Positions 875 to 49,201 of a stretch of 49,365 nucleotides of DNA are shown here, piece after piece. The position numbers and the translations under genes were made by a program. The DNA lies in the IMG/VR virus record IMGVR_UViG_3300047171_000109, positions 1 to 49,365 of that record; one strand, 5' to 3'. Positions within the stretch are counted from its first letter, which is position 1. Every line of letters starts with the position of its first letter. A model generated the notes under the pieces. The model had not been told where the DNA came from, did no database searches, and worked only from the letters and a program-made list of their open reading frames with translations. The DNA comes from a virus.

Positions 875-2962
875 TCACGGACACTGGCTGGCGCTGCTGG
901 GACAGGCGCCGTCGTCGGTGGCACTTGTCGGCAGGTAGCCCTCGGTGAGGCCGTAGCTGATGGCGGGGCTGGCGGGTGACGAGGTGGAGAGGGCGAAATT
1001 GGTGGTGGGGTTGATCAGGTCGGGGTTGGTGGCGAACTTGTTCTGGCTCGCGAGCACCACGCCCGTCGTCATGGTCTCGCTAGCGACAGCGCTGCCTGAG
1101 TAACCGGTCTGATAGGTGCCGGTGCCGCCGAGCGCGCCGCCGCTGGCGGTGCTGGTGAGCTGGGAGGTGATCTCCGCCAACGTGGCGCCGAAGCTGCTGC
1201 CTGCTGACAGATAGGTGCCCTGCGCCAGCAGGTTTCCGGCCGTCGCGCTGACCGTGAGCACGCCGGCGGTGGATAGGCTGGCGGTGATCTGCTGCGATTG
1301 CTCGTAATTGAAGAGCAACGGCTGCCCGGCGCCGACGCCGACCAGCGATGGTGCGGCGCCGATCGTATAAAGCAGATTGCTCTTGTAGGTGTTGTTCTGG
1401 TCGTTCACGGCGGCATAGGCGCCATTGCCCGCGATCAGCGGCACCACCTGGCCGCCGCAATAGGTGTTGCAGCCGCTGGGGGTGTTCGTCGTCTGGACCG
1501 CGACCGCGATATTGTTGATCCACAGATTATTGTCGCCGCCCGCCTGGCTCAGCTCACCCAGGCCGTAGGAATTGTTGCAGATATCCTGTGCATCACCATA
1601 GCCTGTGTTGTTGGCGACCGTCACATTCGATGCGCTGAACACATGGATGCCACGCCCGCCGTTGCTGTAGGTGAGGTTGCCGCTGGCGAGCGACTGATAG
1701 GGATAGACCAGCGTGTGGTTGGTCTCATCGAGCCAGGTATCGAAGATGATGCCGTTGCCATCGGTGTGGCTGCCGCAGGCGACCGTGCCGCCATTCGCCG
1801 GCGAAAGAATCTGGTTCCCGTGCACATTATTGTATTGTACAAGAATGTGGAATGGATACCCGTACGTGGTGTCCATCCCGCTCGGCGTATAGGTGCCGGT
1901 GCCGCCGGCGTAGGTTGACCCCGAGGCGCAGTTCGCGTTGCCCGACTCGATGCACTGCACCACCACCATGCCGATGCCTGAACCCTGATAGCCGCTGGTC
2001 CAGGCATTATTCTCCACAGTGTTGTGGAGAATGTAATACCACTCTTTATTGTTTAGGCTGATGCCTGCCAGATTGCAGTTCTGCATGATATTGTTGAGCA
2101 GCCAGATGTGGTGCGAAGACTGGCCGGTGCCATAGGTGTCTCCGTCTGACCCGACACAGGCATCGGCCAGGCCGCCGAGCGTGCTGGTGTTGTTGCCATC
2201 GAAATTAAAACCGTCGAACACCACGAAATTCGCCGGCTGCTTGATGCCAACCAGGTGGCCGCCGCCGCTCGCCAGGATGTGGCAGGTATCAAGCCCCTGG
2301 CATCGATAGACGAGATAGCCCCCTGCGGTAGGGCCAGCGCCGCCCGCGGTGACCAGCAAGCTGCCGGTGTAGGTTCCGGCCGCGACATTGATGCAGACGC
2401 CGCCGGTGCCGTTTGTCTGTGCTGTTTGCGCATGGGCGAGCGTTGCCCAGGGTGCAGCGCTGGATCCGGTGCCGGTCGTGTCGCTGCCGCTCGTCGCGAC
2501 ATACTCGTTCGTCGTGCAGGTATAGAACGGGGCGGCATAGACGGCCGCACTCGGGCCGGGGGTTTGCACCGTGGTCGAGGAACACGTGATGGTGGTGTTC
2601 AGCGGCAGAGATGAGCTGCCCTGTGTTGCCGTGATAGTGAGCGCATATGAGGTGCAGGCCAGTGCGCCATTGGTTTGCAGCGTGCTGCCGACGAGCGTGA
2701 AATTGGATGCGCTGGCGCCGGAGAGAGCAAGCGAGCCGCTAAAAGACCCACTGCTCATGGCAACGGTGATCGTGCCGACCGTGGTGCCGGTCGGCGCACC
2801 AGAAACGAAGCTGGACGGGGCTAGATTGACCGCGGTAACCGTGGGCGAGCTGCTAACACCGAACGTGAGCGTGCCCGAGAGGGTGCCCGGCAAGCCGCCT
2901 GTTTGCGCGAAGGCGCCAAGCGAGCTTGCAAGCCAGATCAGCGCAGCGGTGAGAGAATTCAT
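875..2962 (-). CDS. Secreted right-handed beta-helix protein, end of late operon
   Basis: A 695-residue protein. The N-terminus (MNSLTAALIWLASSLGAFAQ) is a Sec signal peptide with a likely cleavage after AFA. Residues about 30-130 look like an Ig/cadherin-type beta domain. From about 150 the protein is typical of pectate-lyase-like parallel beta-helices: Asn-rich repeats such as HHIWLLNNI, NNVHGNQI and NNTGYGD. Cysteines are numerous, which fits disulfide bonding outside the cytoplasm. It is the last gene of the long minus-strand operon, where tail fibre or spike genes usually sit, and its ATG overlaps the stop of the preceding gene (ATGA). It could be a polysaccharide-binding or depolymerising spike, or an exported lysogenic protein. 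No catalytic residues were identified. Confidence 0.72.
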   Translation of the reverse strand: MNSLTAALIWLASSLGAFAQTGGLPGTLSGTLTFGVSSSPTVTAVNLAPSSFVSGAPTGTTVGTITVAMSSGSFSGSLALSGASASNFTLVGSTLQTNGALACTSYALTITATQGSSSLPLNTTITCSSTTVQTPGPSAAVYAAPFYTCTTNEYVATSGSDTTGTGSSAAPWATLAHAQTAQTNGTGGVCINVAAGTYTGSLLVTAGGAGPTAGGYLVYRCQGLDTCHILASGGGHLVGIKQPANFVVFDGFNFDGNNTSTLGGLADACVGSDGDTYGTGQSSHHIWLLNNIMQNCNLAGISLNNKEWYYILHNTVENNAWTSGYQGSGIGMVVVQCIESGNANCASGSTYAGGTGTYTPSGMDTTYGYPFHILVQYNNVHGNQILSPANGGTVACGSHTDGNGIIFDTWLDETNHTLVYPYQSLASGNLTYSNGGRGIHVFSASNVTVANNTGYGDAQDICNNSYGLGELSQAGGDNNLWINNIAVAVQTTNTPSGCNTYCGGQVVPLIAGNGAYAAVNDQNNTYKSNLLYTIGAAPSLVGVGAGQPLLFNYEQSQQITASLSTAGVLTVSATAGNLLAQGTYLSAGSSFGATLAEITSQLTSTASGGALGGTGTYQTGYSGSAVASETMTTGVVLASQNKFATNPDLINPTTNFALSTSSPASPAISYGLTEGYLPTSATDDGACPSSASQCP

Positions 2963-3897
2963 GGCAGAGATACTCCGGTGACACTAACGCCGCTTGAGAT
3001 TGCAGTAGGATCGACGTAGATGCCGCTGGTGAAAATATCCGCATAATTGTAGGTTGATGCGTTGCACCAGGTGATCGATGTGCCGGTGGCAGTTCCGAAT
3101 GTGGACACCGGATTACTCGTGGAAGCGACGCCGTCAACCCAGACATTCGTGGCGCCGCCTGAAGTAATGGACACAGCCATACGATGGGCGTGGGTAAGGG
3201 TGAAATCGCTCGTTCCAGTGGCATCGGTCGCCGTCTCGGTCACGACGCTCGCACCGCCGGTCGGCTGCGCAGCCAGTGTATTTGCAGCGCTATTGTTGCT
3301 GATGGCCGTGCCACCGACCGCATAGCCGTAGGTTTGGTTCGACGTGAAATTCGCTACATGAGCGAACGTCATGCCCATGGTGAATGGGAGCGGGATGCTG
3401 GTGATCGTGGCAGACATGCCATGCGTGCCGCTGGATGCGCAGGCCATCATTGGCAAGCTATTCCAGCCGCTCAAGATGAAATATGGCGCGTTGGCATAGG
3501 CAGCCGTCATTGGCGCGGAAGTCGAGCCGATTTGCTGATAAACCTTCGTGACGCGCATGATACCGCCATAAGCGCAAGCACCCGCACCATCAGCCGAGCA
3601 CAGCGCGGAAACAGTGATGCCGCCAGTGCAATACGATGTGCCCGATGAAACATCGAGGTGACCGGAAGGTAGAACCTTGACGCCAGTGCAAGTATTTGTG
3701 TTGTCACTTAAGTCTGCAGCAACCACTTGGCTGCTGGCTAGCGCCGCACTAGCCGCGCTCAATCCCCAATAAAGCGAGATGGTCGATTCTTTGTCCGCCG
3801 GACCAATATAAATTATCGGATTGAAGGTGATGGTCTGCGCGCTCGCATGGTGGAACGCGAGCAGAGGCGCGAACGGCGCGAAAAGAAAACGGGTCAT
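2959..3897 (-). CDS. Secreted unknown protein (concanavalin-like or beta-rich)
   Basis: The ATG at 3897 gives 312 residues starting MTRFLFAPFAPLLAFHHASA, a clear signal peptide with cleavage near ASA-Q. An earlier in-frame start at 3933 would bury the signal, so 3897 is chosen. The mature part is Ser/Thr/Gly-rich and beta-prone, with several cysteines. A central stretch (TLTHAHRMAVSITSG then TNVWVDGVA) resembles a laminin-G or concanavalin-like lectin fold, but this is weak. It overlaps the next gene by four bases. It sits in a run of five signal-peptide genes at the end of the late operon. Confidence 0.62.
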   Translation of the reverse strand: MTRFLFAPFAPLLAFHHASAQTITFNPIIYIGPADKESTISLYWGLSAASAALASSQVVAADLSDNTNTCTGVKVLPSGHLDVSSGTSYCTGGITVSALCSADGAGACAYGGIMRVTKVYQQIGSTSAPMTAAYANAPYFILSGWNSLPMMACASSGTHGMSATITSIPLPFTMGMTFAHVANFTSNQTYGYAVGGTAISNNSAANTLAAQPTGGASVVTETATDATGTSDFTLTHAHRMAVSITSGGATNVWVDGVASTSNPVSTFGTATGTSITWCNASTYNYADIFTSGIYVDPTAISSGVSVTGVSLP

Positions 3898-5207: not shown

Positions 5208-6149
5208 TTATGTCCCCTGATGCACGGCTACGTTTCCGACATTGGTGCAAAAAATGGTCACATTCGTATTCGGTGGCGGCTCAGAGAGGTTCCAGTCCCA
5301 CCCACCGGGGATTGGAGTTGAGTTTGCGCTCGCCGTGCCCCCGTCCTGGCGCATGAAGCAACTCTGAATATTCGGCACAATAGAAAGAAACCTAACGGTG
5401 CTCGAAGTTGTCCAAACAACGGTTGAGGTGTTGACGGCCACAGACACATTTGTGTCAGTCGAGGTCTGCTGTGTGGGTGCCGAAATTGTCGCCGTGGTGT
5501 TCGATGCCAGCGCGACCGTTTGCGTGCCGCTGAAGCTGACCGCCGGCAGTGACGCGACCACGACATTAACCGAGGCGTTGGTGATGTGTTCGGGCACCCC
5601 GCCATCAGCATTCAACGTCGGAGAGGTTAGCGCGCCGGAGCTGTTCGGAAACCCCATCTGAAGCGCGGCCGAGGGCACTGCGCTGCCCGTCGTGCCGGTG
5701 CCTGGGATCGTGAGGCTACCAGCGATCGTGGCCGTGCCGCCGGAGGCAAGCGCCATTGTCCAGGTGCCGCTTTGGCTCACCTGCAGAGCGCCGGCTGTAA
5801 TCAGCGCATCGAGCGCTGACGTGATAGGAAATTTGTTGGTGCTGCTGACAGCAGCACCGCCATAAGTCATGTAGAATGGCCAAGCGTTCGCCACGCTTGC
5901 CGGCGTGCCCTGATTGCCCGATCCGCCGCCCCCGCTACCGCTGCAGCCGGTGATGCAGTCCATTTCCAGAATATGGCTGGCATCGAGAGCGGGGACAGCA
6001 AAATTGCCGTCCGGCAAAATGCCGAGATTGATATAGGCGCGGCTGGGGATTTGTGCCGGCGACGTGTATTCCGGTCCGAGCGCCGCTGTGGTGAACAGCA
6101 CAAACACAGCCAGGCACGCGAACGCCGTTCGCGTAGCGCGCACTCTCAT
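5208..6149 (-). CDS. Secreted unknown protein with Gly/Ser linker
   Basis: The ATG at 6149 is preceded by an AAAGG Shine-Dalgarno seven bases away and gives 313 residues. The N-terminus MRVRATRTAFACLAVFVLFT is a signal peptide; cleavage probably follows TTAALG. A short Gly/Ser linker (SGSGGGGSG) follows at about residues 73-81. The rest is a low-complexity, Thr/Ser/Ala-rich beta-repeat sequence of the kind seen in phage fibre or baseplate wedge accessory proteins. One copy of the palindrome GCGAACGCCGTTCGC (6118-6132) lies inside the signal peptide codons. I do not recognise a family. Confidence 0.6.
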   Translation of the reverse strand: MRVRATRTAFACLAVFVLFTTAALGPEYTSPAQIPSRAYINLGILPDGNFAVPALDASHILEMDCITGCSGSGGGGSGNQGTPASVANAWPFYMTYGGAAVSSTNKFPITSALDALITAGALQVSQSGTWTMALASGGTATIAGSLTIPGTGTTGSAVPSAALQMGFPNSSGALTSPTLNADGGVPEHITNASVNVVVASLPAVSFSGTQTVALASNTTATISAPTQQTSTDTNVSVAVNTSTVVWTTSSTVRFLSIVPNIQSCFMRQDGGTASANSTPIPGGWDWNLSEPPPNTNVTIFCTNVGNVAVHQGT

Positions 6150-39177: not shown

Positions 39178-39669
39178 CTAAGACGCGTTATCCTGTCGGC
39201 GTTTTTGCGGGCCGCGCTGCGCCAGGCCGCGGTTCTGCAGCACGCCGAGCGCCAGGCCGACGGCATTGCTCAAATCACACAAATCGCCGATCAGCAGGTC
39301 GGTTTCGGCGAGCGTCAGGCCGCCGCCAAGCGCCGTGAGCGCATCGCTCAGCGTTTTGCCGCAATCCTTCGCCACCTCGGCCAAAGCGCGGGCAACATCG
39401 CCCTCGCCCAGCTCCATCGGTAGCAGCACGAACCCTTGCAGCCGCGCCAACTCGCGCGTGATCAGCGGATCGTTGCCGCATAATTCCAGATCGAGCACAA
39501 CATCGGCCGGCATGAACCGATCCGGGCAATTCGCATTGCCATACTCGTTCAATTTCGAAGGCGCCACACGCGTGGCGGCCGAGCACGCTTCCTGCCCACC
39601 CAAGCCCCGTAGCAGCACTTTTGTTGCCGTTTTCAGCCCCGCACGGGCCAGATCGTCCGACGCGCGCAT
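39178..39669 (-). CDS. Phage regulatory protein CII (CP76-like)
   Basis: A 163-residue protein. GLKTATKVLLRGLGGQEACS, then ATRVAPSKLNEYGNA and FMPADVVLDLELCGNDPLIT are typical of the CP76/CII-type phage regulators that bind near early promoters and influence the lysis-lysogeny decision. Residues 25-90 hold the HTH-like body and the C-terminal tail is helical. It is the first gene of the leftward operon after the moron genes; the Cro-like gene lies 1.5 kb upstream on the same strand. Confidence 0.76.
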   Translation of the reverse strand: MRASDDLARAGLKTATKVLLRGLGGQEACSAATRVAPSKLNEYGNANCPDRFMPADVVLDLELCGNDPLITRELARLQGFVLLPMELGEGDVARALAEVAKDCGKTLSDALTALGGGLTLAETDLLIGDLCDLSNAVGLALGVLQNRGLAQRGPQKRRQDNAS

Positions 39670-39754
39670 CTAGCGGCACACGGCCGGAGCGGGCTTTTGC
39701 CACGCCCCGGCCCCGCCTACGCTGCGGCTGTGCAGACCAGCAGCGGAGAGGAAA

Positions 39755-40066
39755 ATGAGTGACGACCCAACGGGCGAACTACCCAAGCGCGTGGCATCGC
39801 TCGAGGCGAAGATTACCACGCTGGAAACCCGGATGATCGTAGCGAGCGGTACCGCGATCGCAGGCACGCTGCTTTCGCAGGCGCTTCTGGATCTGCTGGA
39901 ACGCGTGTTGCCGCCCGGCTTTCGCAACGAGATCATCGACGGTCTGCTTCTTGTGCTGGAAAACAACAGGGAAGGCCTTCCGGACGCGTCAAAAGCCGAT
40001 CTCGATTTTGCGCGAGCCAGGCTCCAAGCTCTGCTGCGACCTTATCCAACCAATGCGCCGGAGTAG
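39755..40066 (+). CDS. Small coiled-coil protein, moron-like
   Basis: A 103-residue protein with GGAGAGG before ATG 39755. VASLEAKITTLETRM at the N-terminus forms a short coiled coil, and VASGTAIAGTLLSQALLDLL is a hydrophobic helix that may enter the membrane. The gene runs rightward, opposite to CII and Cro, only 85 bases from the CII start. It probably is expressed in the lysogen with the next gene. Function unknown. Confidence 0.55.
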   Translation: MSDDPTGELPKRVASLEAKITTLETRMIVASGTAIAGTLLSQALLDLLERVLPPGFRNEIIDGLLLVLENNREGLPDASKADLDFARARLQALLRPYPTNAPE

Positions 40067-40242
40067 CGCCGCGCGGTGCGGGCGTTCTGCGCCACATGCC
40101 CGGCCGAAACCGTTTCTTGTGCCGCGTCATGCCGCCCCCAAAAGGACCGGGAATCCCATGACGCACCGCAACATGGGCGGCATTTTTGCGCCCACGGATC
40201 GTTGTGGGTGTGGCAATGGCGGCGGGAGGATGGCAGGGTAAC

Positions 40243-40257
40243 GCGAACGGCGTTCGC
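40243..40257. repeat. Dispersed palindrome GCGAACGGCGTTCGC upstream of the WYL-like gene
   Basis: A perfect copy lies 13 bases before the ATG at 40271. The position would suit an operator, but eight other places in the window carry the same motif, so a regulatory role cannot be claimed for this copy alone. Between 40067 and 40242 only a 27-codon ORF (40158-40241) was seen; it is not supported further. Confidence 0.75.
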
Positions 40258-40270
40258 GGGGGAGGCGGGG

Positions 40271-41188
40271 ATGGCACGGCAAAGGCGGCACAAAGCGCCG
40301 GAACCGACGGCGACGGAAAGCGCGTGGATGGTGCTGGCGGTTATCGCGATCGTTGTGGTGCTGGCCGTCTATCACTGGTACGCGGCGCTCGACCCGGAGG
40401 TAAGAACGGCGCTGAACGCCGGCTTGGCCCTGATCGCATTCTTTGCCGTCGTTTTTGGCGTGGCCTCGCTGTTGAAGCGCCCAAAACGTGGCCAGAAGCT
40501 TTCTATCCCGCCCGCCATGCCGCCGCCGCAAGCTGTGCCGTTCGAAATCATGCAGCCGGCTGTGCAGCAGCCCTTCGGCCACAAGGGCATCGCGGCGCCC
40601 GCGCGCGCGCCGCCGCCGGGCGTGATCAACGTCAGCGGTGCGCCGGAAATCCTGCTCATTCACCGCAACCGGGCCGGGCGCTACGTGGCGCGCCAGGTCA
40701 CCGTCTACACGGTTCGGCTGCGCGCGCCGGCGTTTACCCAGATCGAATCGATCGAGGGGAACTGCCACGCCACCAACAAAATCCAAACCTTCGACGGCGC
40801 CCATTGCCGCAGGTTCATCGACATGGAAACGGGAAACGATATCCCGAATTTCATCGCGTGGGCACGGGCGCCGGAAGGCGCGGACAGCCTTTCCGATACC
40901 GATGCCGGCGATTCCACGCTGGCCATCACAAAGGCGAACTGCGACGTTCTCCTGCGCTACAAAGACAGTGCCGGCCACGCGACCGAGAGGCTGATCACCA
41001 TCAAATCGGTAGACGGCCACTACACGAGGGCCGGCGAGCCGCACGTGGACGTTCTGCATGCCTACTGCCATTTGCGGAACATGCCCCGCAGCTTTGTGTG
41101 GGACCGCGTGATTACGATGGCAGACGCGTCTACGGGGGAAATCATCGACAGTCCCGCAGAGTGGCTGGGGATTGCGCGCGGCCATTAA
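40271..41188 (+). CDS. Membrane-anchored protein with two WYL-like modules
   Basis: ATG 40271 with GGAGGCGGGG gives 305 residues. Two hydrophobic segments lie at about 19-37 (WMVLAVIAIVVVLAVYHWY) and 47-68. A Pro-rich linker leads to two similar soluble units: about 126-190 (EILLIHRNRAGRYVARQVTV, later CRRFIDMETGNDI) and about 225-290 (DVLLRYKDSAGHATERLITI, HVDVLHAYCHLRNMPRSFVW, DRVITMADASTGEI). The second fits the WYL-domain pattern (Y...G...R.I.P...., AYC.LR..R.F...RI). WYL domains sense ligands and are common in phage-defence regulators. The gene runs rightward between Cro and CII and converges on cro, overlapping it by four bases. Confidence 0.66.
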   Translation: MARQRRHKAPEPTATESAWMVLAVIAIVVVLAVYHWYAALDPEVRTALNAGLALIAFFAVVFGVASLLKRPKRGQKLSIPPAMPPPQAVPFEIMQPAVQQPFGHKGIAAPARAPPPGVINVSGAPEILLIHRNRAGRYVARQVTVYTVRLRAPAFTQIESIEGNCHATNKIQTFDGAHCRRFIDMETGNDIPNFIAWARAPEGADSLSDTDAGDSTLAITKANCDVLLRYKDSAGHATERLITIKSVDGHYTRAGEPHVDVLHAYCHLRNMPRSFVWDRVITMADASTGEIIDSPAEWLGIARGH

Positions 41189-41457
41189 GCGGCGATCTCC
41201 TTCGCAGGAGCGCGGCGATTGGACGCCAGTTTGGCAAGATCGCTCGCGGATGCACCGATGATGTTCCGACGATACGCAGCCTGTTCGATACCGGCCCAGA
41301 ACTCCGGCGGAATGAAACGCCGATGCCGCCACACACGCACACGGGACAGCTTGACGCCGACGTCCACGGCGAAATCGGCGTCGCTCGGCCAAAGGCGAAT
41401 GATGTCGGCTAACGTCTCCATATCGAGAGAATTGCGCAACGCAATTGATTTGTCCAT
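41185..41457 (-). CDS. Cro-like repressor
   Basis: A 90-residue protein from ATG 41457, MDKSIALRNSLDMETLADII, then VDVGVKLSRVRVWRHRRFIP, an HTH of the YdaS/Cro type in which the recognition helix precedes an RxxIP turn. It starts 57 bases from the divergent CI gene and has operator 41431-41445 inside its first codons. It would drive the lytic choice by repressing CI and is read leftward, toward CII and replication genes. Confidence 0.72.
   Translation of the reverse strand: MDKSIALRNSLDMETLADIIRLWPSDADFAVDVGVKLSRVRVWRHRRFIPPEFWAGIEQAAYRRNIIGASASDLAKLASNRRAPAKEIAA
41431..41445. promoter_or_regulatory. Operator ATTGCG-N3-CGCAAT in the cro gene start
   Basis: ATTGCGCAACGCAAT, six-base arms with a three-base centre. 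The same form occurs at 42632-42646 and 42665-42679, so this is the best candidate for the CI/Cro recognition site. It lies in the first codons of cro and in the path of leftward transcription. Confidence 0.78.
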
Positions 41458-41514: not shown

Positions 41515-42189
41515 ATGAAGCTATCCAAACCGAATGAGCGGCTTCGTTACGCCCGAGAGAATGCTGGCTACCTTACGCCGAAAGCCTTTTCGAGCGCGCA
41601 CGACATCCCGCAGCCGACCTATCACCTGCACGAAAGCGGGCGCCGCGCGATATTGCCGGCCGTGGCCAGTAAGTATGCCGAGGCGCTGAATTGCTCGGCC
41701 AGCTGGATTCTCACAGGAGAAGGCGACCCACCGGAACCGCCGGAGCCGATCGCGCCGCCGCCGCCGTTCCGCATAGCCGAACTCGACGTCCGGGCGTCGG
41801 CCGGCGCCGGCGGAAACGCGCTTCGGATCGACAATCTTTCGACCGAAACCGAAATCTGGCAGGTGCCGCAGGACTTCATGCGCGCGCAGACGACGGCGAG
41901 CCCCGACAATATCCGGATCATCCGGATTTATGGCGATAGCATGGCACCTTTATTTCAGCCCGGCGACCGTGTGTTGGTGGACCTGAGCGACGTGAAGCCT
42001 AGCCCCGCCGGCGTCTTCGTTCTGTGGGACGGCCTCGGGATCGTGGTTAAGAGGGTGGAATTCGTCCCCTATTCGGCGCCGCCGACCGTCAAGCTGATGA
42101 GCGCGAATGCAGACTATGCCACCTATGAAAGGCCGCTGGCCGATATCCACATCAATGGGCGGGTGATCGCAAAATGGCAGTGGACATGA
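41515..42189 (+). CDS. CI-type repressor with S24 peptidase domain
   Basis: A 224-residue protein. The N-terminal HTH is MKLSKPNERLRYARENAGYL to PQPTYHLHESGRR. A Pro-rich linker (70-85) leads to DVRASAGAGG, with Ala96-Gly97 as the likely autocleavage bond. The S24 core has YGDSMAPLFQPGDRVLVD (Ser142 nucleophile) and GIVVKRVEF (Lys179). RecA-stimulated self-cleavage would induce the prophage (family knowledge). There is no Shine-Dalgarno, and the promoter candidate puts the transcript start next to the ATG, so the mRNA may be leaderless. Confidence 0.88.
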   Translation: MKLSKPNERLRYARENAGYLTPKAFSSAHDIPQPTYHLHESGRRAILPAVASKYAEALNCSASWILTGEGDPPEPPEPIAPPPPFRIAELDVRASAGAGGNALRIDNLSTETEIWQVPQDFMRAQTTASPDNIRIIRIYGDSMAPLFQPGDRVLVDLSDVKPSPAGVFVLWDGLGIVVKRVEFVPYSAPPTVKLMSANADYATYERPLADIHINGRVIAKWQWT

Positions 42190-42632
42190 AGGTGTGGCTG
42201 GTGGCCGGGCTGGTCGCGTTCGGCCACCAGGCGGCCTCCGAGACGTTGGGCGAGCGTCTTTTCAAGTGCCGGCAGATGAACGCGGACACCGATCGGCTAA
42301 CCTGCTATGATCAGGCCATCGACGCCGGCGAGCGCGCCGCGAACGACGCTCGAAAAGGCGAAACCGTAGCCGGCGAGTGGGATGGAAACGGCCTTACCGT
42401 CACCCGGCCATTTCATATTTCAGGGCCGTGGGAGCTGCGCTGGACGTCGGAGGATGGATTTTTTGCCGTCCTCAAAAGCCCCAGCGGCGAGACCATTGAC
42501 GCCCTTGCCGAGCAAAGTAAGGGCGGAGACGGCCATACCTACGTGCCGAAAGGCGGCGATTATACCCTTGAGATACACGGGTTCGGCGAGTGGCACGCAC
42601 AGGCAGTGGTAGTGTCAAAGTTATCCAGGTGA
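42186..42632 (+). CDS. Periplasmic protein coupled to CI (VasI/TagO-like N-terminus)
   Basis: ATG 42186 overlaps the CI stop (ATGA) and gives 148 residues. MKVWLVAGLVAFGHQAASET is a signal peptide. RLFKCRQMNADTDRLTCYDQ carries the C...DRLxCYD motif of small VasI/TagO-type periplasmic proteins. The C-terminal part WELRWTSEDGFFAVLKSPSG and later GGDYTLEIHGFGEWHAQAVV is a beta-sandwich-like unit. Because it is co-transcribed with the repressor it would be made in every lysogen: superinfection exclusion or envelope modification is a reasonable guess but not shown. Confidence 0.62.
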   Translation: MKVWLVAGLVAFGHQAASETLGERLFKCRQMNADTDRLTCYDQAIDAGERAANDARKGETVAGEWDGNGLTVTRPFHISGPWELRWTSEDGFFAVLKSPSGETIDALAEQSKGGDGHTYVPKGGDYTLEIHGFGEWHAQAVVVSKLSR

Positions 42633-42646
42633 TTGCGTAGCGCAAT
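42632..42646. promoter_or_regulatory. Operator ATTGCG-N3-CGCAAT (right cluster, copy 1)
   Basis: ATTGCGTAGCGCAAT, perfect six-base arms, immediately after the stop of the CI-coupled gene. It is 21 bp from the centre of the next site, two helical turns, so two repressor dimers could bind on the same face. Confidence 0.78.
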
Positions 42647-42652
42647 TTCCCT

Positions 42653-42679
42653 ATTGCGTATCGGATTGCGTTACGCAAT
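42653..42679. promoter_or_regulatory. Operators copy 2 (half) and copy 3, with rightward early promoter
   Basis: ATTGCGTATCGGATT (42653-42667) has one good half; ATTGCGTTACGCAAT (42665-42679) is perfect with seven-base arms. A promoter is visible in the same bases: -35 TTGCGT (42654-42659), 17-base spacer, -10 AATAGT (42677-42682). CI bound here would shut off the rightward operon that begins at 42716. Confidence 0.62.
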
Positions 42680-43509: not shown

Positions 43510-43817
43510 TAAAATGCGTTGGTTGTCACAGAGAGTTTCCGGCGCGCGATGGGTTTGTCCGCGGGCTTTGTCCCATGTGCGTAAAAATAGGCATGACCTT
43601 TGAAGAACTGCCTCCCGACGCGCCGAGCTTCGCCCGCGCGATACCCATTGGCGAACTTGCTTCGGCCTGCTTGCGGAAACTGGCACTGAACCATCTCATC
43701 CTTATGCAAGACCGCGTGCCGCCCGGCGTGAATTTTCTCGACGACGCAATCGAAGCGCTCGATATCGCCGACAAGCTGCAGGGAAGCGAACCGCGTTCGC
43801 CGGGGGCTGCGCCATGA
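43497..43817 (+). CDS. Zinc-ribbon protein
   Basis: The ATG at 43497 gives 106 residues. KCVGCHREFPARDGFVRGLCPMC is a CxxC...CxxC zinc-ribbon near the start; the rest is helical and acidic (PPDAPSFARAIPIGELASA). Its stop overlaps the ParB-like start (ATGA). A variant palindrome GCGAACCGCGTTCGC (43786-43800) lies at its end. Such proteins may be DNA or RNA-binding adaptors. Confidence 0.55.
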   Translation: MASLIKCVGCHREFPARDGFVRGLCPMCVKIGMTFEELPPDAPSFARAIPIGELASACLRKLALNHLILMQDRVPPGVNFLDDAIEALDIADKLQGSEPRSPGAAP

Positions 43818-45586
43818 GCGCCACGGCCACGGCCGCCGCGTTTTGGGACGCGTTCGATCGGCTTGCCGGCGACGTTCCCATCACGCAGATCGAAACCGAA
43901 TCGGGCCTCGGCCGCGGCACGCTTTCCAAGGCGCGCGCGGCCGTTACCGTGCCCGGCTCGCTTTCCACGCTGATGGCGGTGGCGCAGCGTTTTGGCGTGG
44001 CGCCGGCGGCGCTGCTGCCCGATTTGGCCGGCGCGCCGCAAACGCCGGATGCAGCCTCGATCTGCGAAATCCAACTCGGCTGCATTCGCGCCAGCGCACT
44101 GAACCCGCGCCGCAGTTTTGACGACGACGCGATCGCGGAGCTGGCAGAAAGCATCGCGGCGCAAGGGCTTTTGCAAAACCTCGTCGTTCGCAAGGATCCT
44201 GATCAGCCGGAACTCTACTGGGTGGTGGCCGGCGAACGCCGTTCGCGTGCGCTGGCGAAGCTGCGGGCCGAAGGCCGGCTGCCGGCCGATCTCGCCGCCA
44301 ACGGCATCCCGTGCCGCATCATCACGCTCGACGATGAGGAGCATGTGGCGCTGGCGCTGGTGGAAAACCTCCAGCGCGAGGATGTCAACCCGATGGAGGA
44401 GGCAGAGGCGCTCGATCGCCTGCACCGCGCAAACCCCGAAAAATGGACCACGAAATTCCTGGCCGAACGAATCGGCAAAACCCAGCGCTTCGTCCAGCAG
44501 CGCCTGGCGCTGGCCGCGAAACTTCCCGACGACGCGAAAGATGCTTTGCGTGGTGGCCGCATTACGATCGAACAGGCCCGCGTGATCGCCAGCGCGCCGG
44601 CCGAGGAGATGGATGACGTCATACGCCGCGCGGTGGACCATCAGATTCCGGCCAAGCACCTCGCGCTCGACGTTAGCCATTCGTTTTTCCCCGCCAAATT
44701 TGCTCTGTTCGATGTCGCCACGTGCGGGTTGGAAACCTGGACCGATCCAAACACGGATGAGGTTTTCTTCCCCGATTTCGACACGGCCATGGCGCTGCAG
44801 GAAGCCAAGGTGAACGAGAAGCAGCAGGCCTATCTCGACGCCGGCGCCGATTTTGTAGAAATCGTGGAATATTTTGTCCCGAGCCATTACCCCGAAGGCG
44901 GCAAAGGCGTTGTGATCTGCTGCGACAATGACGGCGAGGTGTCGATATTCGAGAATCGGCGCCGCGCCGAAGATGTGGCCGCCGGCAAAAGCGAAGCGGC
45001 AGCGCCAAAAGTATCCCATTGGGAAGCAGCGCCAAAAGTATCCCATTGGGAAGCAGCGCCAAAAGTATCCCATTGGGAAATCGAGGCTCGATACCGCGCG
45101 CAATGTGCCGACGCAGCCAGAAAACTGGTGGCGAAGCTGGGCCCGACGTTGTCGCCCACCGATGCGATCGCGCTGTTTCTCTACGGCCTGGCACTACCCG
45201 CCGTTTCCGCCACCAAAAATTATGGCGCCAACGCGGAAGGCCCCGATCAGAAAGCGCTATTCAACGAACTGCGCAGTTTCAAGCTGGGCGACCCCGCGGC
45301 GTTCAAGCACGTGCGCGATTGCGATCTGCCCCTGATGGACAAGGCCTTCAGCCAGGCCGTCGCCGCCATGATCCACGTGGGCACCACCATCAGCCCTGCC
45401 CTGCTGGTGTTGGCGCAGCGGCACAAGATCGCCGTGCCCGCCATTCTGCGCCACACCCCCAAGCAAAAGGCCGAGGCGCTGAAGCGCATCGAGCAGGATC
45501 TGCTGGGCCAGACCGATCTGGAAGATGGCGTCGCCGCCAAAAAGGCCGCGGCCGCCACGGAGGAACCGGAGGATGAGGCCGCATGA
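43814..45586 (+). CDS. ParB-like protein with N-terminal HTH and internal triple repeat
   Basis: A 590-residue protein. The N-terminus (TQIETESGLGRGTLSKARAA) is an extra HTH. The ParB/Srx core follows: ALNPRRSFDDDAIAELAESI, VVAGERRSRALAKL, RIITLDDEEHVALALVENLQ, REDVNPMEEAEALDRLH and a second HTH at about 205-245 (TKFLAERIGKTQRFVQQRLA). Residues 396-422 are three perfect copies of AAPKVSHWE. The C-terminal 160 residues are helical. No ParA is encoded. ParB proteins bind parS sites and hydrolyse CTP; here a role in partition, replication or regulation is open. One dispersed palindrome (44232-44246) is inside the gene. Confidence 0.78.
   Translation: MSATATAAAFWDAFDRLAGDVPITQIETESGLGRGTLSKARAAVTVPGSLSTLMAVAQRFGVAPAALLPDLAGAPQTPDAASICEIQLGCIRASALNPRRSFDDDAIAELAESIAAQGLLQNLVVRKDPDQPELYWVVAGERRSRALAKLRAEGRLPADLAANGIPCRIITLDDEEHVALALVENLQREDVNPMEEAEALDRLHRANPEKWTTKFLAERIGKTQRFVQQRLALAAKLPDDAKDALRGGRITIEQARVIASAPAEEMDDVIRRAVDHQIPAKHLALDVSHSFFPAKFALFDVATCGLETWTDPNTDEVFFPDFDTAMALQEAKVNEKQQAYLDAGADFVEIVEYFVPSHYPEGGKGVVICCDNDGEVSIFENRRRAEDVAAGKSEAAAPKVSHWEAAPKVSHWEAAPKVSHWEIEARYRAQCADAARKLVAKLGPTLSPTDAIALFLYGLALPAVSATKNYGANAEGPDQKALFNELRSFKLGDPAAFKHVRDCDLPLMDKAFSQAVAAMIHVGTTISPALLVLAQRHKIAVPAILRHTPKQKAEALKRIEQDLLGQTDLEDGVAAKKAAAATEEPEDEAA
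44999..45079. repeat. Three perfect 27-bp tandem repeats inside the ParB-like gene
   Basis: Copies at 44999-45025, 45026-45052 and 45053-45079 are identical. Each encodes nine residues and contains TCCCATTGGGA, an 11-bp near-perfect palindrome. Their perfect identity suggests recent expansion or a conserved DNA role, since iterons inside an initiator gene are known from lambda O. Confidence 0.95.
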
Positions 45587-47948: not shown

Positions 47949-48314
47949 ATGTCTGAGCCGGGCATCTGGTCAGCCGAGCGCGAGGCGCACCTGCTGGGTG
48001 TCACCCGCCGAAAGCTCGCCTACCTGCTCACGCGCCACAAGCCGCCCGTCTTGCGCGCCGGGCGCGACATCCTGTTCGATGAGGTCGCCCACCGCTTTCT
48101 GATCGAGGCCATGCGATGCCCCACCGAGCCCCCGGCCTGCGCGTCGTTACCCGCAAGGGCACCGAAACCCTCTACCTTCGCGGGACGGTCCGCGGCATCC
48201 GCGTGTTTGAAAGTGCTGGAACATCCGATCGGGCCCTCGCCGAAGAAGCGCGCGCCGCGCGGGAAGCGGAGGTCTTCCGTGGTGCTGTTCACGGCTTCGC
48301 GCCAGCCGCCGTAA
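47949..48314 (+). CDS. Putative excisionase (AlpA/MerR-like HTH)
   Basis: ATG 47949 gives 121 residues. AEREAHLLGVTRRKLAYLLT and LRAGRDILFDEVAHRFLIEA are a typical winged-HTH of phage excisionases (helix, turn, then R-x-x-I-x-F-D..). The last 66 residues overlap the integrase coding sequence by 199 bases and look basic and unstructured, so the functional protein may be the first 60 residues. Location directly before integrase supports a role in directionality of recombination. Confidence 0.6.
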   Translation: MSEPGIWSAEREAHLLGVTRRKLAYLLTRHKPPVLRAGRDILFDEVAHRFLIEAMRCPTEPPACASLPARAPKPSTFAGRSAASACLKVLEHPIGPSPKKRAPRGKRRSSVVLFTASRQPP

Positions 48315-49201
48315 GCTGGGGCCACGCCGCCCTCTCCTACCTCACCCATGAACGCCGGGCGCCATCGACCATCCTCTTCGTCAAGCGCCTCATCCCGGTG
48401 ATCGGCATGAAACCCTGCCGCGAGATCGACCAGGTGGCCATCGACCTCGCCTGCCGCACCCTATGCCGGCCGGGTGCCAAGCCCGTCACCAGGCTGCGCA
48501 ACGTGGTCGCCCCCGCCCGCGCCGTGCTGATGCACGCGGCGCGGCGCGGCTGGTGCGATGCCCCCCGCTTCGAAATCGCCAAACCCAGCCCCGCCCGGAC
48601 GGACTGGCTGAGCCCGGCCGAGGCCGAGGCCATGATCGCCGCCGCCGGCGACTGGAAGAAGCATCTGCGGCCGCTGCTGGTGTTCCTGTTCTGCACCGGC
48701 GCCCGCCTGGGCGAGGCGCTTACCCTGCAATGGGACGATGTGAACCTCACCCACGCGCGCGCCGTGCTGCGCGATACCAAGGGCGGCGGCGATCGCCAGG
48801 TTGATCTCACCCCGCGCGTGGTCGCCGAGCTGGCCAATCTGCGGCACCGGAAGAACGAGGTGTTCCGCGCCTTCGGCGGCAAGCCCTATCGGCCGACAGA
48901 TCAAAGCCGCACCGTGGGCTATGGCGGCCAGATACGAAAGGGCTGGGCCTCATGCCTGAAGGCCGCCGGCATCAAGCGCCGCCTCACCCCCCACCACGCC
49001 CGCCACAGCTGGGCCAGCTGGCACTACGCCGTCCACAAGGATCTTCTCCGCCTCCGCCACGACGGCGGCTGGTCCCAAACCGCCATGGCCGAACGCTACG
49101 CCCATCTAACCCCGCCCGGCATGGCAGCCGACATTCTCGCGTTCTGGAACGGTGCACCATTCGTGCAGCAGCCCAACACGATGCAAAAGCAGTCCGCTTA
49201 G
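48116..49201 (+). CDS. int: Tyrosine integrase
   Basis: A 361-residue protein. The N-terminus (GLRVVTRKGTETLYLRGTVR) is an arm-type DNA-binding domain, followed by a core-binding helical domain. Catalytic residues are visible: Arg197 in GARLGE, Lys222 in DTKGGG, His293/Arg296 in TPHHARHSW, Trp319 in GGWS (replacing the usual His) and Tyr328 in ERYAHL. It ends 39 bases before attR, and the target is the 3' part of tRNA-Thr. It would be expressed rightward with the putative excisionase. Confidence 0.92.
   Translation: MPHRAPGLRVVTRKGTETLYLRGTVRGIRVFESAGTSDRALAEEARAAREAEVFRGAVHGFAPAAVSWGHAALSYLTHERRAPSTILFVKRLIPVIGMKPCREIDQVAIDLACRTLCRPGAKPVTRLRNVVAPARAVLMHAARRGWCDAPRFEIAKPSPARTDWLSPAEAEAMIAAAGDWKKHLRPLLVFLFCTGARLGEALTLQWDDVNLTHARAVLRDTKGGGDRQVDLTPRVVAELANLRHRKNEVFRAFGGKPYRPTDQSRTVGYGGQIRKGWASCLKAAGIKRRLTPHHARHSWASWHYAVHKDLLRLRHDGGWSQTAMAERYAHLTPPGMAADILAFWNGAPFVQQPNTMQKQSA

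What the first reader, a model, noticed from the sequence alone, without database searches (positions are those of the whole stretch)
40271..41188. Membrane-anchored tandem WYL-like protein in the immunity region
WYL domains are usually soluble regulator modules fused to HTH. Here two WYL-like units are attached to two membrane helices and no HTH is present. The gene is inserted on the opposite strand between Cro and CII, the place where accessory genes expressed in lysogens often land. It may sense a ligand (nucleotide or RNA fragment) at the membrane and exclude other phages, an unrecognised arrangement to my knowledge.
Basis: partly seen in the sequence, partly recalled or inferred. Interest (0 to 1): 0.72.

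Follow-up and report, generated by a model that had tools for sequence, protein, structure and literature searches.

The report
Membrane-anchored WYL protein beside phage repressor
A temperate phage carries, next to the switch that keeps it dormant, a membrane protein with two WYL domains (a type known to sense nucleic acids), and relatives sit in the same spot in other phages of acetic acid bacteria; it may be a dormant phage's alarm against other viruses, which is untested.

Summary
The gene at 40271-41188 (+ strand) encodes 305 residues: two membrane helices, a proline-rich linker and two WYL domains, with no HTH found. Unit 2 is a confidently predicted WYL Sm-fold that keeps four of five ssDNA-contacting arginine positions; unit 1 is a diverged WYL copy that keeps one. 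Pfam's WYL model misses this protein but matches close relatives above its cut-off.

It is not unique. Acetobacteraceae (pro)phages, including inducible phiAP1 and phiKM1, carry membrane-anchor-plus-WYL proteins with one to three WYL modules at the same place: cII(-), wyl(+), cro(-), cI(+). In 24 of 30 regions fetched, the repressor helix-turn-helix lies downstream on the same strand with an antisense ORF, often cro-like, between; 0 of 8 other WYL loci look so. Starting from cII instead, 7 of 50 loci carry it, so it is optional cargo.

Best reading: a lysogen-side cargo protein whose cytoplasmic WYL pocket senses a nucleic acid, probably ssDNA, at the inner membrane, and acts in exclusion or abortive infection: a Rex-like idea in one polypeptide. 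Architecture and position are shown; expression, ligand and exclusion are inferred. Modulation of the cI/cro switch is the main rival.

The parts
40271..41188 (+). TM-WYL gene, 305 aa: 2 TM helices + linker + two WYL units
40261..40265 (+). GGAGG, likely ribosome-binding site 5 nt before the ATG
   Evidence: read from the sequence printed
40310..40384 (+). TM helix 1 (residues 14-38); N-terminal tail MARQRRHK is basic, cytoplasmic by the positive-inside rule
40394..40474 (+). TM helix 2 (residues 42-68), followed by basic KRPKRGQK, so the WYL part is predicted cytoplasmic
40475..40645 (+). proline/alanine-rich linker (residues 69-125), low model confidence
40646..40861 (+). WYL unit 1 (residues 126-197), diverged: keeps the R181 equivalent and the Cys, has T/Q/D/H where R204/R208/R211/R214 are expected
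40934..41164 (+). WYL unit 2 (residues 222-298), Sm-like barrel, pocket kept: equivalents of R181, R204, R208, R214 present, R211 is V
41185..41457 (-). cro-like gene, convergent with and overlapping the end of the WYL gene by 4 nt; weak YdaS-type match (E 0.003, below cut-off)
41515..42189 (+). CI-type repressor, HTH + peptidase S24 domain
   Evidence: start ATG chosen by reading
39178..39669 (-). CII-like activator (phrog_101)
39755..40066 (+). small ORF, 103 aa, same strand, between cII and the WYL gene; role unknown
41431..41445 (.). putative CI/Cro operator ATTGCGNNNCGCAAT at the cro 5' end (others at 42632-42646 and 42665-42679); no exact copy lies upstream of the WYL gene
48116..49201 (+). 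integrase (phrog_1), showing that the phage is temperate

Best explanation
The gene is optional cargo of the phage immunity region, read on the same strand as cI and away from cII, hence not part of the cro-cII lytic operon. Its product sits in the inner membrane by two N-terminal helices and holds two WYL domains in the cytoplasm. Unit 2 has the intact basic pocket and binds a nucleic-acid ligand, most likely short ssDNA produced during infection or DNA damage; unit 1, without the pocket, serves as a structural or dimer partner. Ligand binding changes oligomeric or membrane state and restricts an infecting phage (exclusion or abortive infection), as RexA/RexB are proposed to do with two proteins. 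Shown: architecture, WYL fold, pocket residues, conserved position. Inferred: cytoplasmic side, expression in lysogens, ligand, output.
For: WYL identity of both units. Pocket kept in unit 2 at four of five PafB positions (positions from PafBC); across 42 other non-HTH modules tabulated, the R208 position is R in 37 and the R181 position in 35. Multi-WYL relatives likewise pair intact with degraded modules (L070, L072, L080, L083). Relatives with a TM anchor and no HTH in phiAP1, phiKM1 and IMG/VR phages. Position: 24 of 30 regions (25 of 31 WYL ORFs; 16 of 22 groups) have an XRE repressor downstream on the same strand, 22 of the 25 at 320-450 nt; 0 of 8 control WYL loci do. 18 of these 25 ORFs have a predicted TM segment. 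Basic residues follow the last TM segment in every TM member, pointing to a cytoplasmic WYL. cII-anchored survey: 7 of 50 loci, interval 389-2664 nt, so the gene is optional. Precedents: RexA/RexB, Sbash gp30/31, OptE/Cap15, Csx23/Cam1.
Against: No expression, binding or phage-challenge data exist. No sigma-70-like promoter or CII-type TTGC-N6-TTGC site was found between 39670 and 40271. 7 of 25 cI-linked relatives lack a TM segment (two with a Cys-rich N-terminus), so the membrane is not needed everywhere; anchors differ in sequence and number of helices, which speaks against a conserved pore. R211 of the pocket is V and the eponymous W and Y are absent. Linkage to the cro-cI switch would also fit a regulatory role. 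Several long intervals without WYL hold minus-strand ORFs, so 'cargo slot' is only partly shown.
Confidence: 0.42

Rival explanations
1. Regulator of the lysogeny switch: the WYL protein senses ssDNA (damage) or another nucleotide signal and alters CI/Cro action or stability from the membrane, tuning induction or establishment.
For: Tight conserved order wyl-cro-cI; WYL ligand ssDNA is a DNA-damage signal in DriD/PafBC; RexA also biases the lambda switch and interacts with CI and Cro.
Against: 43 of 50 cII loci fetched have no WYL there, so the switch works without it; no HTH; the tethered position makes direct operator action less likely.
Confidence: 0.28
2. Receptor or DNA-entry exclusion (Sie-type): the membrane part blocks injection of related phages and the WYL part only binds a partner or entering DNA.
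For: Membrane anchor, lysogen-side position.
Against: Anchor sequences are not conserved while the WYL module is; Sie proteins as recalled from memory have no sensor domain.
Confidence: 0.12
3. Lysogenic conversion or host-fitness gene with no direct role in phage conflict, e.g. tethering host RNA or DNA at the membrane in an Hfq-like way.
For: WYL is Sm-like, and Sm/Hfq chains rank with WYL chains in VIA-align.
Against: Retained WYL-type arginines rather than a generic Sm face; position with immunity genes.
Confidence: 0.12
4. Not a functional gene: an antisense ORF of a high-GC phage.
For: Overlapping ORFs on other frames are long.
Against: Codon-position GC of the + frame, ribosome-binding site, homology across many groups in the same frame, confident fold.
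Confidence: 0.02

Closest known systems
HTH-WYL(-WCX) transcription factors (PafBC, DriD, CapW/BrxR)
   Same: WYL Sm-fold and arginine pocket; ssDNA is the known ligand of PafBC, DriD and CapW.
   Different: No HTH and no WCX domain here; membrane-anchored; one intact and one degraded WYL in a single chain.
Acetobacter phage phiAP1 'WYL domain protein' and Komagataeibacter phage phiKM1 'regulator YafY'
   Same: Same architecture class (2 TM + WYL) and same place before cro-cI.
   Different: One WYL only; phiKM1 is annotated from a late start that drops the TM part; 39% identity over the 67-77 aligned residues.
Lambda RexA/RexB and Sbash gp30/gp31
   Same: Gene beside the repressor (lambda), nucleic-acid binding plus membrane part.
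   Different: Two proteins; no WYL reported for them in the passages read; rex is transcribed with cI from PRM; exclusion there is shown, here inferred.
S-2TM-beta effectors (CBASS Cap15, Panoptes OptE)
   Different: No cyclase identified among the ten neighbouring proteins searched; the barrel here matches WYL, and homology to Cap15 was not found.
Type III CRISPR membrane effectors Csx23 and Cam1
   Same: TM helices fused to a cytoplasmic ligand-binding domain.
   Different: Different sensor domains; no CRISPR gene seen among the neighbours searched.

Membership tests
WYL domain superfamily | Sm-like SH3 barrel matching WYL structures | tested here: met
   Units 2 and 1: best 12 and best 15 Foldseek rows are WYL proteins, E 2e-3 to 8e-2
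WYL domain superfamily | sequence-profile match | tested here: met
   phrog_6785, PADLOC WYL profiles and own WYL models; Pfam PF13280 is missed by the window protein but exceeds its cut-off in L003, L010, L011, L067
WYL domain superfamily | basic residues and Cys lining the groove (PMC4012209, section 8) | tested here: met
   Unit 2: R, C, R, R, R; unit 1 keeps only R and C
HTH-WYL transcription factor | N-terminal HTH | tested here: not met
   No HTH family at E<=1; N-terminus is two TM helices
HTH-WYL transcription factor | WCX domain (in most members) | tested here: not met
   Protein ends 7 residues after unit 2; no WCX match
Rex-type exclusion system | lies beside cI on the lysogen-side strand | tested here: met
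Rex-type exclusion system | RexA DUF4747 homology and separate 4-TM RexB | tested here: not met
   No DUF4747 match at E<=1 in this protein; one chain with 2 TM
Rex-type exclusion system | excludes superinfecting phage | not testable with these tools
   needs phage challenge
S-2TM-beta (Cap15/OptE) | Cap15-family beta-barrel | tested here: inconclusive
   No Cap15 row among the listed Foldseek or VIA rows; absence there is not proof
S-2TM-beta (Cap15/OptE) | two-pass TM element N-terminal to a soluble barrel | tested here: met

The most novel reading that the evidence does not exclude
A one-protein prophage sentinel: a membrane effector gated directly by phage- or damage-derived ssDNA through a WYL pocket, that is, WYL used as the switch of a membrane-disrupting exclusion protein rather than of a transcription factor, spread as optional cargo between cII and cro in Acetobacteraceae phages.
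Probability: 0.25. Interest if true: 0.82.

Novelty: new variant of a known kind. Interest (0 to 1): 0.6.

Why it matters
WYL domains are known as ssDNA or nucleotide sensors of transcription factors that control damage and anti-phage responses. A recurrent family of HTH-less, mostly membrane-tethered, one- to three-module WYL proteins tied to the cro-cI region would be a direct, non-transcriptional use of the sensor, and a Rex-like idea in one chain. It is quickly testable, since phiAP1, with an induced phage and a cured host strain, carries a simple one-WYL member.

Tried and rejected
One search queried the minus strand by mistake and only matched itself; it is not used. (A5) had a frame error in one row and is not used. 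A reading that wyl and cI overlap by 4 nt (L069, L085) was dropped: the HTH of those repressors starts at residue 112-128 of the longest ORF, so the first part is probably antisense to cro. The CII/pRE-driven transcript idea is kept only as inference: no TTGC-N6-TTGC or sigma-70 match lies in 39670-40271. The idea that the anchor is one conserved membrane element was rejected: L010/L011 anchors match phrog_8436, the records of the window, phiAP1, phiKM1, L095 and L013 do not. Distant hits of the L011 anchor in phages were too weak to use. Close relatives of the exact tandem (unit 1 + unit 2) were not found in viral contigs or in 200 genomes of the order. No PDB chain matched by sequence. No plasmid match. 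Ten non-WYL ORFs from the cII-cI intervals gave no Pfam family above its cut-off. No Cap15 row appeared in fold searches, which does not exclude kinship.

Selection: the 30 regions were picked by hand from strong matches (65 of 397 genomes matched); HTH-WYL regulators were left out, and six such loci plus two loci served as controls. Controls hold only about 1-1.5 kb of flank. In the cII survey 50 of 65 places were fetched (the weaker 15 dropped); one (L171) is a 1.1 kb contig end, three others (L146, L157, L178) showed no repressor on the expected strand, so interval lengths rest on 46.

Full report
What is there. The window is a 49,365-base virus record of a temperate myovirus-like phage: tail sheath, baseplate, terminase, portal and capsid genes, an integrase at 48116-49201, and an immunity region with CII-like (39178-39669, -), cro-like (41185-41457, -) and CI-type HTH plus S24 (41515-42189, +) genes. 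The finding is the gene 40271-41188 on the + strand, convergent with cro and transcribed toward cI. It has coding-type codon composition and a ribosome-binding site. Its 305-aa product has two TM helices, a proline-rich linker and two WYL units.

Unit 2 is WYL. Profile matches are phrog_6785 (5.8e-12), PADLOC RTasWYL (3.5e-7) and PADLOC WYL (1.4e-3). Pfam PF13280 does not match the window protein, but in the ten proteins it scores above its cut-off in phiAP1, L010, L011 and L067 and in the two HTH-WYL controls, just under it in L095, well under it in L075, and not at all in L065 and L068. The AlphaFold model is confident over residues 221-300 and weak elsewhere in the soluble part. Foldseek puts PafBC, BrxR and CapW first (E 2e-3 to 2e-2, no row at or below 1e-3). 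VIA-align gives Z up to 7.0 with Sm proteins, PafBC, CapW-ssDNA and BrxR intermixed, as expected for an Sm-like barrel; Z under 8 alone would prove little.

Unit 1 is a diverged WYL. It aligns to unit 2 better than 1000 shuffles and scores 27.2 bits against a WYL model built without window sequence, with the best of 2000 shuffles at 10.7. Folded alone with WYL modules as its alignment it is confident (pLDDT 88), and its top 15 Foldseek rows are WYL. That alignment may favour the WYL answer; in the full-length model unit 1 stays mostly under pLDDT 50.

Pocket. PafBC needs R181, R204, R208, R211 and R214 of PafB for ssDNA, as tested in combinations (passages of PMC11804915). My alignment of these positions (placing the PafB numbers on the module motif is my own reading of the spacing) gives R, R, R, V, R in unit 2 and R, T, Q, D, H in unit 1. 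In relatives with several modules one is intact and others are degraded (L070, L072, L080, L083), although L064 keeps most positions in all three. In PafBC too only one of the two WYL domains is essential for ssDNA binding.

Relatives. Acetobacter phage phiAP1 and Komagataeibacter phage phiKM1 carry 2TM-WYL proteins; they belong to the mitomycin C-inducible temperate phages of acetic acid bacteria (passages of PMC8566455; 'WYL' does not occur in that text). IMG/VR phages add L010 (2 TM + three WYL), L011, L013, L095. A profile search matched 65 of 397 Acetobacteraceae genomes, HTH-WYL regulators included, and, with a stricter cut-off and another profile, 4 of 385 genomes of the class, two of them genomes already found in the family search, one WYL-TerB-like and one HTH-WYL by reading. 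I infer an Acetobacteraceae host for the window; this was not shown.

Position. In 24 of 30 fetched regions (25 of 31 WYL ORFs) an XRE-type repressor lies downstream on the same strand; its HTH begins 320-450 nt after the WYL stop in 22 of the 25, and at 660, 812 and 1058 nt in the others. An antisense ORF lies between in all of them; it is cro-like by HTH match in some and by reading in others. Two of these repressor calls, L066 and L089, are weak by HMM and rest on reading, and for L066 a sub-threshold S24 match. At 50% identity the 31 proteins fall into 22 groups, 16 of them linked. Not linked: L074, L078, L081, L084, L088, L092. Among 8 control WYL loci none has a separate XRE gene within the 1-1.5 kb held (one weak hit lies inside the WYL protein itself). 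Of the 25 linked ORFs 18 have a TM segment. The topology rests on the positive-inside rule (recalled) and on basic residues after the last TM segment.

Cargo or core part? Starting from cII (phrog_101) instead, 52 of 397 genomes had a match. Of 50 loci fetched, 7 have a WYL gene between cII and cI. In the 46 with a repressor found, the interval is 389-2664 nt; 20 are 826 nt or shorter and leave little room beside cro, and 19 longer ones lack WYL. Some of these hold plus-strand ORFs with TM segments or signal-like starts, others minus-strand ORFs. Ten such plus-strand ORFs have no Pfam family above cut-off. So the WYL gene is optional; that the interval is a general cargo slot is likely but not proven.

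How it may work. I favour a lysogen-side membrane sensor for exclusion or abortive infection (0.42). Precedents in the passages read: RexA binds DNA and RexB is a 4-TM membrane protein, both transcribed with cI, and RexA also biases the switch (PMC11077077); Sbash gp30/31 (PMC6426596); 2TM-barrel effectors OptE/Cap15 (PMC12657218); Csx23 and Cam1 (PMC11229360). Against a conserved pore: anchors differ and 7 of 25 members have none. Switch regulation is the main rival (0.28).

Novelty. The papers whose sections or passages I read (PMC4012209 section 8; PMC6789036 section 9; passages) describe WYL with HTH, WCX, helicase, nuclease, BRCT or TerB partners, none with TM anchors. Searches pairing WYL with membrane terms and with phage, lysogeny or superinfection terms listed nothing on this arrangement (titles and abstract starts seen). 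Supplementary files were not read, so a mention there cannot be excluded. I rate it a new variant of a known kind.

Noticed in passing
window 41431-41445, 42632-42646, 42665-42679: Three exact ATTGCGNNNCGCAAT palindromes (0.03 expected) at the cro start and before the early genes after cI: likely CI/Cro operators.
   Followed up: partly
window 42174-42632 (+): ORF right after cI with a signal-peptide-like start and weak VasI similarity: possible second lysogen-side cargo, in the place of lambda rex.
   Followed up: no
L010:4001-5197: Komagataeibacter europaeus prophage protein with 2 TM and three WYL modules; its anchor and that of L011 match the phage family phrog_8436 of 110 positions.
   Followed up: partly
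L002:4740-5249: phiKM1 'YafY' gene is annotated from a late start; the full ORF includes two TM helices.
   Followed up: yes
L068:5009-5611 and L071:1498-2046: WYL proteins at the same place with a Cys-rich, zinc-ribbon-like N-terminus instead of TM helices.
   Followed up: no
L086:4755-5054 and 5237-5695: Soluble 99-aa WYL gene followed by a TM-WYL gene on the same strand, before cI.
   Followed up: no
L092:917-2146 and 2644-3741: WYL protein next to a protein that by reading looks like a DEDD 3'-5' exonuclease, both with a similar N-terminal stretch.
   Followed up: no
L004:3983-4192: 69-aa lone WYL-like protein beside the primase in Stenotrophomonas phage Stm18 (Autographiviridae).
   Followed up: no
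window 43814-45586: ParB-like protein with three tandem copies of the peptide AAPKVSHWE.
   Followed up: no
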